NCBI RefSeq assembly: GCF_001742145.1 | Contig: NZ_CP015749.1 | Coordinates: 3,286,001-3,350,000 of the forward strand | Source: Pectobacterium parmentieri | GTDB lineage: Bacteria > Pseudomonadota > Gammaproteobacteria > Enterobacterales > Enterobacteriaceae | DNA length: 64,000 bases | Direction of reading: 5' to 3' | Shown: piece by piece, positions 55,846-63,993 of the stretch | Position numbering within the stretch: position 1 is the first letter of the stretch | Layout: each line of letters begins with the position of its first letter | Notes under the pieces: generated by a model | The model's input: the letters and a program-made list of their open reading frames with translations, nothing else | Database searches by the model: none | What the model was told of the DNA's origin: nothing | Position numbers and translations under genes: made by a program

Positions 55846-55973
55846 TTATCCGAGCGTTGAACATCCGCCCCCTTTGCTATTACAGGCAACGCGACCATAG
55901 CCGCGGGTAATAACACGCCAGCCATAGTTCAGCAGAGTTTTTTTCTTTCAAAAAACAGATCAATTAATCTCAT
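55846..55973 (-). pseudogene. truncated signal-peptide gene at the end of the sulfatase operon
   Basis: An ATG at 55925 opens a frame beginning MAGVLLPAAMVALPVIAKGA, a good Sec signal peptide, which runs on for ~27 codons to the insertion-sequence end near 55850 and stops being coherent. An upstream ATG at 55973 gives 14 codons in the same frame before a TGA. The gene appears to have been cut by the insertion sequence whose transposase tail is next door. What it encoded is unknown; by position, a further sulfatase or hydrolase. Confidence 0.55.
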
Positions 55974-55996
55974 GGCAATACCTTTGGTCAAAATGA

Positions 55997-57676
55997 CTAT
56001 TTATCCATTAACTCTTTTAGCTGCGGCGCACTCTTCTTTACCGCTTCATTCGAGGCCTTTACCCTCGCTTCTTTGCCGATCTGATCGGGGATAAATCCGG
56101 CGAGAATATCTTCGTGGTTGTACCCTTTCAGCCATTCGCGCGGGAATGGGGCTAGCTGCTCACCGGCACCTTCATGGCGATAAATCTGCCCTTGCCCTGT
56201 ACGTTGGTTATACGGGATCACGTTTTTCCCCTGCCGATCGCCCAGCTCTTCATACAGTTTTTTGCGCAACGCAATTTTGGTATTGACGATCTTCTCATCG
56301 GTAGAATCGATCAGGTTATGTTTCTCTTCACGATCGTTCTTCATGTCGTACAGTTCTTCTTTATCCCACACACCGTAATATTGGATGTATTTGTATTCCG
56401 GCGTCCGTATCGCAAACGTGGTTGGCGTCTGCGGGAAGCTGTATTCCCAGAAGTATTCATAGACGAAGTAATCGCTACGCTTCGGCGTGTTATAACCATC
56501 CAGCCCCAGACGCCAGAAGCTCTGCCCATCATAATGCTTCGGTGCGGCAACACCTGCGGCTTCCAGGATCGTTGGGGCAACGTCAATGTTTCTGACAATG
56601 TCTTCCACGACTTTATCTTTGGCAAAGCCCGGTCCGGAGGCAATCAATGGCACGCGAATCGACTCTTCATAAGCGTTACGCTTATCAATCAGCCCATGTT
56701 CGCCGAACATAAAGCCGTTATCCCCCATCACCATGATAATCGTGTTCTTATCCAGCCCCTGTTTTTGCAACCAGTCACGCACGCGTCCCACGCTGTCATC
56801 CACCGAGCGCAGCGTTTCATAGTAGTCACGTTGATACTGTTGAAGATCCATATCCGTGTTATAGGGATAATCCACGCCATGCCAGCTATTACGTTGGTTC
56901 TTCACCCACATCGGTTTGCCGACATAGTTTTCCGGCGTATCGGCATAGGTATCCGGCAGCGGGAACGTTACCTCTTTCATGCTGCCACGATGGCGTTTGG
57001 CAGGTAGGAAATCAGAATGCACGCCCTTATGCGATAGGTACATCATGAATGGTTTTTTCTTATCGAGCGTGTTCAACCAATCTACGGCGTAGTCCGTCAG
57101 CTCATCGGTAATGTAGCCTTTTTGCGGCACCATCTTTCCATCAATATTGAGCATGGTCGGCTTGCCATAGTTATCAATCGGATAATAGCTACCTTGCCCC
57201 AGAAGCCCGACCCAGCGATCGAAGCCGGCGAAGCCTTTCGTGGCCGTTTTATCTGCGCCGCCGAAGTGCCATTTGCCAAAGAAGCCCGTTTGATAGCCTT
57301 TGTCACGCAGCAGTTCCGGGAAATAGTTTAGATGAGAGAGATCGGATGGGTTATTATCCGACACCCCATGATTATGCACGTACATCCCCGTCAGAATGCT
57401 GGCACGGCTGGGCGAGCACAGTGATGTAGTAACGAACGCATTCTTAAAATACGTTCCTTCTTTGGCGATGCTATCCATATTCGGCGTGTGAATTGCCGAA
57501 TTCAGGAAACCGAACGCATCGTAACGCTGATCGTCCAGAATGATATAAACAACGTTTGGCTGCTTGTCCCCAGTTGGAGGCACAGCAACGGAAGGAGAAG
57601 CCACCGTTGCAGCATGTACTCCCGCCGTTTGCATACAGGCCAGCGTGATCGCAGCCAGCAGTCTGTTTCTTTTCAT
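55997..57676 (-). CDS. exported Cys-type sulfatase
   Basis: A 559-residue type I sulfatase with a signal peptide (MKRNRLLAAITLACMQTAGV, cleavage near AHA/ATV). The metal site begins with DDQR (D48, D49), and the formylglycine precursor is C87 in the motif C-S-P-S-R followed by ASILTG. Later motifs GKWHFGG and GDNGFMFGEHGL are the usual ones. It needs the adjacent anSME for anaerobic conversion of Cys to formylglycine. The sugar substrate is unknown. Last intact gene of the operon. Confidence 0.93.
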   Translation of the reverse strand: MKRNRLLAAITLACMQTAGVHAATVASPSVAVPPTGDKQPNVVYIILDDQRYDAFGFLNSAIHTPNMDSIAKEGTYFKNAFVTTSLCSPSRASILTGMYVHNHGVSDNNPSDLSHLNYFPELLRDKGYQTGFFGKWHFGGADKTATKGFAGFDRWVGLLGQGSYYPIDNYGKPTMLNIDGKMVPQKGYITDELTDYAVDWLNTLDKKKPFMMYLSHKGVHSDFLPAKRHRGSMKEVTFPLPDTYADTPENYVGKPMWVKNQRNSWHGVDYPYNTDMDLQQYQRDYYETLRSVDDSVGRVRDWLQKQGLDKNTIIMVMGDNGFMFGEHGLIDKRNAYEESIRVPLIASGPGFAKDKVVEDIVRNIDVAPTILEAAGVAAPKHYDGQSFWRLGLDGYNTPKRSDYFVYEYFWEYSFPQTPTTFAIRTPEYKYIQYYGVWDKEELYDMKNDREEKHNLIDSTDEKIVNTKIALRKKLYEELGDRQGKNVIPYNQRTGQGQIYRHEGAGEQLAPFPREWLKGYNHEDILAGFIPDQIGKEARVKASNEAVKKSAPQLKELMDK

Positions 57677-62358: not shown

Positions 62359-62370
62359 AATTATTCCTCA

Positions 62371-63993
62371 TCAGAAAACGACTTCAGCCTGAACACCAAA
62401 ACTGATTTGATAATCTTTCTCATCGTTAAAGCTGTGTTTATCAATCTCATTGTCCAGCGCTTTAAGATAACTGGTGTAGAAACGAATTTCTGGTCGAGAT
62501 TTTAGAAGGCTAGTATCTACTTTGAGGATATGAGCCAGAGTCACCTTATAACCGGATTCATCATAGCTACTATTTTTAGTGGTATTTTTCTGCACAAAAT
62601 AACCAAGCTCTATCGCGGTCTGGTTCGTTCTGTCCCAAATATAGGAAGGACGGATCACCGCACGCATGGTCTCAAAATCCGTGTGCGCACCGTTATTGAT
62701 CGAGTAAAGATCATTACCACGGCCATATACCAGAGAGTGCGCCATGATGACATTATCACGCAGGTATATCTCACCTTGATTGATTAATCTCCAGCCAATG
62801 CCTTCACTATGAATACCGTAATAAGCACTCTTATAGTCAAAATCGGGATTCGGGCCAGAAATATTCATAAACTGGCTAGCAAAAGAATTATTAGCAACTT
62901 GCGCGGTTAATTCATTAAAGCCGCCTAGCACTGGGTGACGTAAAATAGCCTGACCTAACCAGGCAGATTTAACTTTATAGTCATTACCGGCAGATTGCGC
63001 CGCTTTTTGTTCATCAGTCTGGTTAGCAAAAGCATGTTTCACCCCTACTTCAAGAGACAAGTCTTTGCTCAATGGAATATCTTTATATCTAACTTCAGCA
63101 ATATTCACATTAACTTGAGTGGTTTTATTACATGTTGCCGTTGTACAGGTCGTGCTGTAATTATCGATATCATTACGCGTCAATGCCATGCTTAATGATC
63201 CAACAGGCATTTTCCAATTTTCAATCCCCAGACCTGCACCAGAAAGTGTCCGACTACCTTTCCAATCCAGCATTTGGATTTCATATTGTGGCAGTGTGTG
63301 TTTACCGATCCAAAATGTCGCTTCTGGTGCAAAGGGTAGGAAGCCCTTCGTCTCAACAAATAATTTGCTGAGTTTTCCCATTCCACCGCCAGCCATGCCT
63401 TTCTCAAAGGATTCATCACTCTGAGATAATCCTAAATCGCCTTCAAACTGTACGTTAGCCCAAATTGATTTATTGCCTTCCTGCCAGGCACGTTTTTTAA
63501 ATGATAGGTTATACCAACCATCATATTCATTACCTAATCGCCCCAGCGAACCTGCGGCCCAGGATTTAGGGCCACCATTAGTCGTTGATGCATAACCAGT
63601 ACGGAAATAACCGGAATATTTAAATCCAGTGTCTTCCTGAACATATTTGCTAATTTTTTTCAGTGCCGATTCTGATAATACCGGATCGCTCTCCGCAGTT
63701 GCGGATTTGGCTTGTAATGCTACCGCTGGTTGCGCCACGCTTTCATGCCCCGCAACCGTATTTACAGAGGATAAACCAACTAATGAATTTTGTTTTTTTT
63801 CTTTATCTTCATAAGCTTGTAGCTTTTCCTGAGTCTGTTTTAATTGTGTTTCCAGTAATTCCATACGTTGTTCAAGCGTTAATTTTTGTGCCATCGCGTC
63901 CGGTGCCAAACCGTAACAAGATAACAACATTAACACAGCGGCTTTTTTTCTGAATGTCAGCCTTTTATTTCTCACTTTTTTATTATTTATCAT
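62371..63993 (-). CDS. LamB/ScrY-type carbohydrate porin
   Basis: A 540-residue outer-membrane porin with signal peptide ([20 protein letters not shown]) and an N-terminal coiled coil (~37-65, [20 protein letters not shown]), as in ScrY and BglH. The barrel shows LamB-type motifs [27 protein letters not shown], and FWIGKH, with C-terminal Phe (AEVVF). It heads the sulfatase operon visible here. The start codon is seven bases from the window end, so no ribosome-binding site can be seen. Confidence 0.92.

What the first reader, a model, noticed from the sequence alone, without database searches (positions are those of the whole stretch)
55846..63993. Candidate sulfated-carbohydrate utilization operon in an enterobacterial plant associate
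Five intact minus-strand genes with short gaps encode a LamB/ScrY-type porin, a DUF1593 protein, a Ser-type sulfatase, an anSME and a Cys-type sulfatase, with a truncated sixth gene. Seen: all soluble enzymes have Sec signals, and the porin has a coiled coil like sucrose/aryl-glucoside porins. Known: type I sulfatases release sulfate from sulfated sugars or aryl sulfates; DUF1593 proteins are linked to polysaccharide binding or hydrolysis. Inference: an outer-membrane entry channel delivers a sulfated oligosaccharide or glycoside to periplasmic sulfatases and a DUF1593 hydrolase. I recall no described pathway with this set.
Basis: partly seen in the sequence, partly recalled or inferred. Interest (0 to 1): 0.75.

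Follow-up and report, generated by a model that had tools for sequence, protein, structure and literature searches.

The report
Beta-glucoside PTS operon with sulfatases
A potato soft-rot bacterium carries a sugar-uptake operon that seems built to strip sulfate off decorated beta-glucosides outside the inner membrane and then import and burn the bare glucoside; whether it does so is untested.

Summary
The five genes are real and correctly placed, but the window cuts the operon. Upstream lie a BglF-type beta-glucoside PTS enzyme II and a LicT/BglG-type antiterminator; a matching 6-phospho-beta-glucosidase is in the window (46314-47717). Antiterminator-target/terminator leaders (RATs) precede the enzyme II gene and the porin-DUF1593-sulfatase genes. 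By exact length the genome is Pectobacterium parmentieri RNS 08-42-1A. The EII-anSME-sulfatase set recurs at the same place in six other Pectobacterium genomes and in Brenneria, decayed in one more, and as remnants in P. polonicum. A second bgl locus shows the same pairing. Of 15 sulfatase loci read, 14 had a bgl gene and 14 a RAT; of 20 control anSME loci none had a RAT. Best reading: periplasmic desulfation of sulfated beta-glucosides, then PTS import and phospho-glucosidase cleavage. DUF1593 travels with the PTS set, also where no sulfatase is near. The Cys-type sulfatase is nearest to hexose-6-O-sulfatases, so it may free the C6 hydroxyl that the PTS phosphorylates. Substrate unknown; nothing tested at the bench; sulfatase relatives in other genera were not read in context. 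New variant of a known kind (bgl operon).

The parts
46314..47717 (+). GH1 6-phospho-beta-glucosidase, the presumed cytoplasmic enzyme of the system; separated from the operon by about 8.2 kb (47785-55994) that P. punjabense lacks
   Evidence: NCBIfam NF007356 over cut-off (629.8 vs 623 bits); 97% identical to the GH1 beside DUF1593 in P. polonicum; TFNE, IVENG and C-terminal SKRYGFIHV present; collinearity with P. punjabense
55842..55973 (-). broken start of a sixth gene (signal-peptide-like by eye), followed by an IS-like remnant
   Evidence: stops after 14 codons, no match in the loci held then
55997..57676 (-). sulfC, type I sulfatase, Cys-type (CSPSR), SGSH_C domain, nearest to S1_11/S1_25
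   Evidence: Pfam; PDB sequence and fold matches; D331-K332-R333 kept in 27 of 27
57736..58965 (-). anSME (anaerobic sulfatase maturase, radical SAM/SPASM)
   Evidence: TIGR03942 490 bits vs cut-off 349
59033..60829 (-). sulfS, type I sulfatase, Ser-type (SAPSR), nearest to S1_8; start probably 60763
   Evidence: Pfam; best PDB sequence matches S1_8A/S1_8B sulfatases
60892..62358 (-). DUF1593 / Sde182 nucleoside-hydrolase-like protein with signal-like N-terminus
62371..64000 (-). LamB-type porin; gene runs to 64005 if the upstream ATG is used
   Evidence: PF02264 264 bits
64000..64000 (-). operon continues beyond the window (window numbering extended): promoter-like -35/-10 64251-64223, RAT 64181-64210 and terminator 64133-64181 before the porin; LicT/BglG antiterminator 64299-65138; EIIBCA beta-glucoside PTS 65191-67200 (start probably 67152); RAT 67285-67314 and terminator 67237-67287 before it; GGDEF gene 67447-68916

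Best explanation
This is a bgl-type (aryl-)beta-glucoside PTS operon that carries a periplasmic desulfation module. Steps: (1) the LamB-type porin lets a sulfated beta-glucoside through the outer membrane [inferred]; (2) anSME activates SulfC and SulfS before export, and in the periplasm they remove sulfate from the sugar; SulfC most likely takes off a 6-O-sulfate, which would otherwise occupy the hydroxyl that the PTS phosphorylates [inferred from nearest relatives]; (3) DUF1593 may remove or hold another, perhaps furanosyl, substituent [weak inference]; (4) EIIBCA imports the bare glucoside as its 6-phosphate [family knowledge]; (5) the GH1 6-phospho-beta-glucosidase splits it into glucose 6-phosphate and aglycone [family knowledge]; (6) when substrate draws phosphate through EII, the LicT/BglG-type antiterminator binds the two RATs and opens transcription of EII-antiterminator and of porin-DUF1593-sulfatases [sequence elements shown; action inferred].
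For: Gene families. RATs running into terminator hairpins before EII and before the porin, the latter 12 bases after a promoter-like -10. 40 RAT+T-run sites in 24 chosen loci against 0.4 expected from shuffles. At the GGDEF/fadH place, EII, anSME and sulfC are found, whole or broken, in 8 of 9 Pectobacterium loci read, and Brenneria has the set too; the ninth, P. polonicum, keeps remnants of anSME and sulfC. Of 15 sulfC loci (14 genomes, one with a sulfC fragment only) 14 have a bgl gene and 14 a RAT; of 20 control anSME loci 0 have a RAT and 2 have distant PTS/GH1 matches. SulfC is nearest to S1_11 and S1_25 sulfatases, SulfS to S1_8; S1_11 and S1_8 enzymes remove 6-O- and N-sulfate from glucosamine in P. 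heparinus (PMC10154612, passages).
Against: No sulfated beta-glucoside has been shown as substrate. SulfC is 31-34% identical to its best fold matches and I could not place the His that binds O3 in S1_11, so 6-O specificity is unsure; the model is weak at the active site (pLDDT under 50 at 82-89 and 322-330). Relatives of SulfC at 60-77% identity named Methylobacillus, Pantoea, Vibrio, Dickeya, Enterobacter and Salmonella were listed but not read in context, apart from Atlantibacter; if they lack a PTS the pairing is less general. A sulfatase 66% identical to sulfS sits with an anSME and without the PTS set (L157). One sulfC locus (L107) shows a RAT and a porin but no EII, GH1 or antiterminator in 20 kb; another (L105) has a shortened EII and no RAT by my pattern. 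P. polonicum lost the sulfatases and kept the PTS. The loci are not independent samples.
Confidence: 0.58

Rival explanations
1. Glucosinolate use or detoxification: the sulfatases remove the sulfate of glucosinolates in the periplasm; the desulfo-thioglucoside enters by the PTS and is cleaved by the GH1 enzyme.
For: A review states that some gut bacteria use desulfoglucosinolates as carbon source, that a glucose-specific PTS was induced by sinigrin in E. coli VL8, and that the sulfatases of this route are not identified (PMC6767122, passages). Insects disarm glucosinolates by sulfatases (PMC8212129, start of abstract and passages).
Against: The characterised sulfatases nearest in sequence act on sugar-ring sulfate, while this sulfate is on the aglycone (recalled). 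Two or three sulfatases for one sulfate is more than needed.
Confidence: 0.12
2. Aglycone-sulfated phenolic glucosides, such as salicin-7-sulfate or sulfated flavonoid glucosides, are desulfated, then used like salicin.
For: bgl-type PTS and GH1 families serve aryl-beta-glucosides (family knowledge); salicin-7-sulfate is a natural willow product (PMC5999357, search listing); the second locus carries esterases that would fit acylated phenolic glucosides.
Against: Same argument on sulfatase kinship; the plant range of salicinoids does not match the hosts of the carriers (recalled).
Confidence: 0.2
3. Sulfur scavenging: the sulfatases supply sulfate from various esters and share the operon by chance of insertion.
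For: Type I sulfatases can serve sulfur supply (recalled); P. polonicum lost them while keeping the PTS.
Against: They recur with bgl genes in 14 of 15 loci and lie behind RATs of sugar antiterminators, one of them before anSME itself.
Confidence: 0.1

Closest known systems
bgl/arb/asc-type aryl-beta-glucoside operons of enterobacteria (BglG-BglF-BglB, BglH porin; recalled)
   Same: BglF-type EII, BglG/LicT-type antiterminator, RAT-terminator leaders, GH1 6-phospho-beta-glucosidase, LamB-type porin
   Different: adds two sulfatases, anSME and a DUF1593 protein; order EII-antiterminator; RATs begin GGACGT, unlike the GGATTGTTACTGC type at the second locus
Pneumococcal accessory island with a putative cellobiose PTS, sulfatase and maturase (PMC3283741, passages)
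   Same: PTS, sulfatase and sulfatase-modifying factor in one island
   Different: Gram-positive, ROK-family regulator; no sulfatase activity was detected with 4-methylumbelliferyl sulfate
Heparin pathway of Pedobacter heparinus with S1_11 and S1_8 sulfatases (PMC10154612, passages)
   Same: an S1_11 and an S1_8 sulfatase, periplasmic, on gluco-configured sugar
   Different: there S1_9, lyases and GH88 take part; here a PTS and a GH1 phospho-glucosidase
Sde_0182 of Saccharophagus degradans (2yhg)
   Same: fold and family of the DUF1593 protein
   Different: Sde_0182 has three carbohydrate-binding domains before this part (PMC8910321, passages); Pfam shows none here

Membership tests
bgl-type beta-glucoside PTS operon | EII of the beta-glucoside IIABC subfamily | tested here: met
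   TIGR01995 711 bits, cut-off 614.7
bgl-type beta-glucoside PTS operon | BglG/LicT-family antiterminator with CAT-RBD and PRDs | tested here: met
   PF03123 and two PRD stretches; NF046042 LicT 332.7 over 300 bits
bgl-type beta-glucoside PTS operon | RAT overlapping an intrinsic terminator in the leader | tested here: met
   two in this operon; chance expectation 0.017 per 20 kb. The pattern was drawn from the RATs I saw and from recalled RATs. Binding by the antiterminator not tested; the consensus terminator scan lists the EII hairpin but not the porin one, which the fold shows
bgl-type beta-glucoside PTS operon | GH1 6-phospho-beta-glucosidase | tested here: met
   NF007356 over cut-off; 8.2 kb from the operon here, adjacent in P. 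punjabense and P. polonicum
Type I sulfatase (S1), two copies | [C/S]-x-P-S-R formylglycine motif and sulfatase domain | tested here: met
Sulfatase subfamily S1_11 (SulfC) | His for O3 plus Asp/Arg for O4 | tested here: inconclusive
Sulfatase subfamily S1_8 (SulfS) | subfamily assignment by SulfAtlas | not testable with these tools
   best sequence matches are S1_8A/B entries
Nucleoside hydrolase (DUF1593 protein) | DxDxxxDD metal site with catalytic Asp (motif recalled) | tested here: inconclusive
   D56 and D62-D63 kept, but the place of the second Asp of the motif is Gly in 17 of 20 and Glu in 3; activity not testable

The most novel reading that the evidence does not exclude
Beta-glucoside PTS operons of plant enterobacteria carry exchangeable periplasmic 'O6-deblocking' cassettes beside the LamB-type porin: sulfatase plus anSME against 6-O-sulfate, esterases against 6-O-acyl groups, and NH-like (DUF1593) or DUF5060 proteins against furanosyl groups. 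They exist because the PTS needs a free C6 hydroxyl. In support, the second locus of P. parmentieri has a DUF5060 protein where P. aroidearum has anSME and sulfC, keeps the same esterase, and adds an NH-like protein.
Probability: 0.27. Interest if true: 0.72.

Novelty: new variant of a known kind. Interest (0 to 1): 0.52.

Why it matters
PTS systems are thought of as taking plain sugars and glucosides. A recurrent, antitermination-controlled sulfatase module would show that enterobacteria feed on sulfated glucosides, for which the searches named in the full report listed no enterobacterial operon, and would give candidate enzymes for open questions such as the unidentified bacterial sulfatase on the way to desulfoglucosinolates (PMC6767122, passages). 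The locus is easy to test: one inducer screen and two enzymes.

Tried and rejected
Polysaccharide-utilisation reading: set aside because no lyase, endo-hydrolase or SusCD partner is among the operon genes and close DUF1593 orthologues follow the PTS set. Arrival by plasmid: no near (megablast) match to 13 kb of the region among plasmids and none to the 8-kb part in E. coli genomes; tblastn of SulfC at E <= 1e-60 found 8 plasmid records, all under 60% identity. Rfam gave no family at the leaders; two sub-threshold matches lie elsewhere in L010. A paper search for DUF1593 gave 0 papers. Genome length: PMC6963963 and PMC8578433 did not give it, PMC6192338 gave only 5.03 Mb for this strain, PMC8282894 gave it in full. 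The SulfC model was too weak at its active site to read the pocket.

Choice of loci: the 24 loci of the RAT count and the 15 sulfC loci are those I had fetched for their EII, DUF1593 or sulfC genes, not a random sample; most of the sulfC loci come from one genus. L031, L037, L038, L039 and L100 were fetched early and read only at the end; they are not in the count of 24. The 20 controls were picked by hand, spread down the listing, one per genome, leaving out the known sulfC loci. Two are not clean negatives: L142 has a distant GH1 (36%) and a PTS EIIC-like gene beside sulfatase and anSME, and L147 a distant EII (27%), so PTS-sulfatase pairing exists beyond this clade.
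Full report
What was checked. The motifs of a Ser-type (SAPSR) and a Cys-type (CSPSR) type I sulfatase and the CNIDCSYC of the maturase are there. The window ends in the porin gene. Its genome is held as one contig of 5,030,841 bases. That length is printed for P. parmentieri RNS 08-42-1A in Table 2 of PMC8282894 (section 13 read); the same table gives 5,043,228 for P. wasabiae CFBP 3304 (G410), 4,793,778 for P. punjabense SS95 (G406) and 4,826,824 for P. 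polaris NIBIO1006 (G404). The G405 contig of 156,587 bases equals that of P. polonicum DPMP315, a 5,281,458-base contig is named P. aroidearum (G396) and a 129,156-base contig Atlantibacter sp. RC6 (G332). These identities rest on lengths.

What lies outside the window. Reading on towards the operon's 5' side (window numbering extended), there are a LicT/BglG-type antiterminator (64299-65138), a BglF-type EIIBCA (65191-67200) and a GGDEF gene (67447-68916), all on the minus strand. The EII is over the cut-off of the beta-glucoside IIABC subfamily, the antiterminator over that of LicT. The GH1 gene at 46314-47717, inside the window but away from the operon, is over the cut-off of a 6-phospho-beta-glucosidase model and is 97% identical to the GH1 gene beside the same operon in P. 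polonicum. It is one of eight GH1 matches in the genome. In P. punjabense sulfC is directly followed by this GH1; in the window about 8.2 kb (47785-55994) sit between them, holding a LacI-like regulator (by eye), a trehalose-type PTS EIIBC, a GH65 protein, a beta-phosphoglucomutase-like protein (by eye), a RafY-type porin and the IS-like remnant.

Regulation. Before EII and before the porin lies a 30-base element (GGACGTCACC...GGCGAGACC and GGACGTAACTG...GGCGAAACC) whose last bases pair into a terminator hairpin with a T-run. This is the layout of a ribonucleic antiterminator (RAT) of the BglG/LicT/SacY kind (family knowledge). Twelve bases lie between a promoter-like -10 (TTGAAA-17-TATACT, 10 of 12) and the porin RAT, so porin, DUF1593, the two sulfatases and anSME have a leader of their own. 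Promoter matches as such are near chance level (24 found, mean 18.2 in shuffles), and the consensus terminator scan lists the EII hairpin but not the porin one. In the 24 loci scanned there were 40 RAT-plus-T-run sites; dinucleotide shuffles (10 per locus) gave 4 in 240, or 0.4 expected for 24.

Comparative evidence. DUF1593 at E <= 1e-20 is in 10 of 392 genomes drawn from the family and, at 1e-40, in 12 of 25 of the genus. SulfC at E <= 1e-120 is in 4 of 392 and 1 of 394 drawn from the order, its own genome counted, and at 1e-60 in 10 of 25 of the genus. Nine Pectobacterium loci at the GGDEF/fadH place were read: G000, G410 and G406 have EII-antiterminator-porin-DUF1593-sulfS-anSME-sulfC (in G410 only a 94-aa GH1 scrap lies in the stretch read); G396, G398 and G404 have EII-sulfS-third sulfatase-anSME-sulfC then the convergent GH1, with no antiterminator, LamB-type porin or DUF1593 there (G396 has a general porin, PF00267, between anSME and sulfC); G399 has EII-anSME-sulfC-GH1; G394 has a decayed version with an intact anSME and a sulfC fragment; P. 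polonicum has EII-antiterminator-porin-DUF1593-GH1, and the 575 bases between DUF1593 and GH1 still hold pieces of anSME and sulfC. So the sulfatases were once at this place in P. polonicum too. Brenneria has GH1-EII-antiterminator-porin-DUF1593-anSME-sulfC. The other 16 of 25 genus genomes were not read at this place.

A second locus next to a pyk-like gene (by eye), with an EII about 43% identical to the first, has antiterminator, EII, GH1, porin, sulfC (71-72%) and anSME in G403, G393 and P. aroidearum (anSME on the opposite strand in the last two), with a carboxylesterase in G403 and a PF00756 esterase in all three. G332 has antiterminator-EII-GH1-porin-sulfC and, facing away, anSME behind its own RAT; G320 has a RAT before porin and sulfC; G042 has sulfC, anSME, a third-type sulfatase and a shortened EII. 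The second locus uses RATs of the GGATTGTTACTGC kind, the first locus the GGACGT kind, which suggests two separately addressed antiterminators. Together 14 of 15 sulfC loci (14 genomes) have EII, antiterminator or GH1 and 14 of 15 a RAT; of 20 control anSME loci from the same family (135 of 392 genomes have an anSME at E <= 1e-60) none has a RAT and two have distant PTS or GH1 matches.

Limits of this pairing. The protein search listed SulfC relatives at 60-77% identity from Methylobacillus, Pantoea, Vibrio, Dickeya, Enterobacter and Salmonella (only the 7999 candidates sharing most words were scored, 120 listed); apart from Atlantibacter I did not see their neighbourhoods.

Mechanism. The porin, periplasmic sulfatases, PTS and phospho-glucosidase order themselves into one path (see best explanation). 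Shown: the genes, their families, the RAT leaders, the recurrence of the set. Inferred: export and activation of the sulfatases, the substrate, the order of steps. The 6-hydroxyl argument is mine: an EII of this kind phosphorylates C6 and the GH1 enzyme needs the 6-phosphate (family knowledge; PMC6767122 says the like for glucosinolates, passages), so a 6-substituent has to go first.

Literature. Ten searches of the held library were made. Those aimed at a sulfatase module with a PTS, an antiterminator or Pectobacterium listed no description of one in an enterobacterial bgl-type operon. Searches showed 20 of 62 and 12 of 200 papers; only listings and the passages cited were read, and subscription papers are not held. 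The nearest described case is the pneumococcal PTS-sulfatase island, for which no sulfatase activity was detected (PMC3283741, passages). PMC6518042, a metabolic model of P. parmentieri SCC3193, has no occurrence of sulfatase, sulfate, glucoside, salicin or arbutin in its main text.

Verdict. It is a new variant of a known kind. Interest is moderate because substrate and activity are open, but the regulatory and comparative evidence makes it directly testable.

Noticed in passing
window 47785-55994: A LacI-like regulator, trehalose-type PTS EIIBC, GH65 protein, beta-phosphoglucomutase-like protein and RafY-type porin lie between the GH1 gene and sulfC; absent at this place in P. punjabense. 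P. wasabiae has a similar set next to sulfC plus a 94-aa GH1 scrap.
   Followed up: partly
L158 (own genome C1:1109818-1120139): Second bgl-type locus of the same genome: RAT, antiterminator, EII, GH1, porin, a DUF5060 protein (where P. aroidearum has anSME and sulfC), a PF00756 esterase and an IU-nucleoside-hydrolase-like protein.
   Followed up: partly
L010:8682-8711 and 11786-11815, and relatives: RATs of the first locus begin GGACGT, those of the second GGATTGTTACTGC; possibly separate antiterminator specificities.
   Followed up: partly
L044 (Klebsiella sp. BIGb0407): Four RAT-terminators in one cluster, before DUF1593, GH1, EII and porin.
   Followed up: no
L037:12057: A canonical-looking RAT with a T-run stands before a more distant DUF1593 gene in a genome that also has the close one.
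   Followed up: no
L092, L093, L094, L095: Loci with an EII behind a RAT but no antiterminator in the 20-kb stretch; it would have to act from elsewhere.
   Followed up: no
L142, L147: Two other enterobacterial sulfatase-anSME pairs beside distant PTS genes and GntR-like regulators; PTS-sulfatase pairing may have arisen more than once.
   Followed up: no
P0003, P0004: Sulfatases of Methylobacillus, 76-77% identical to SulfC, nearer than those of the second Pectobacterium locus; context not seen.
   Followed up: no
window 22812-23195 and 23435-23821: Two adjacent, similar short ORFs between what look by eye like ispB and mdh genes.
   Followed up: no
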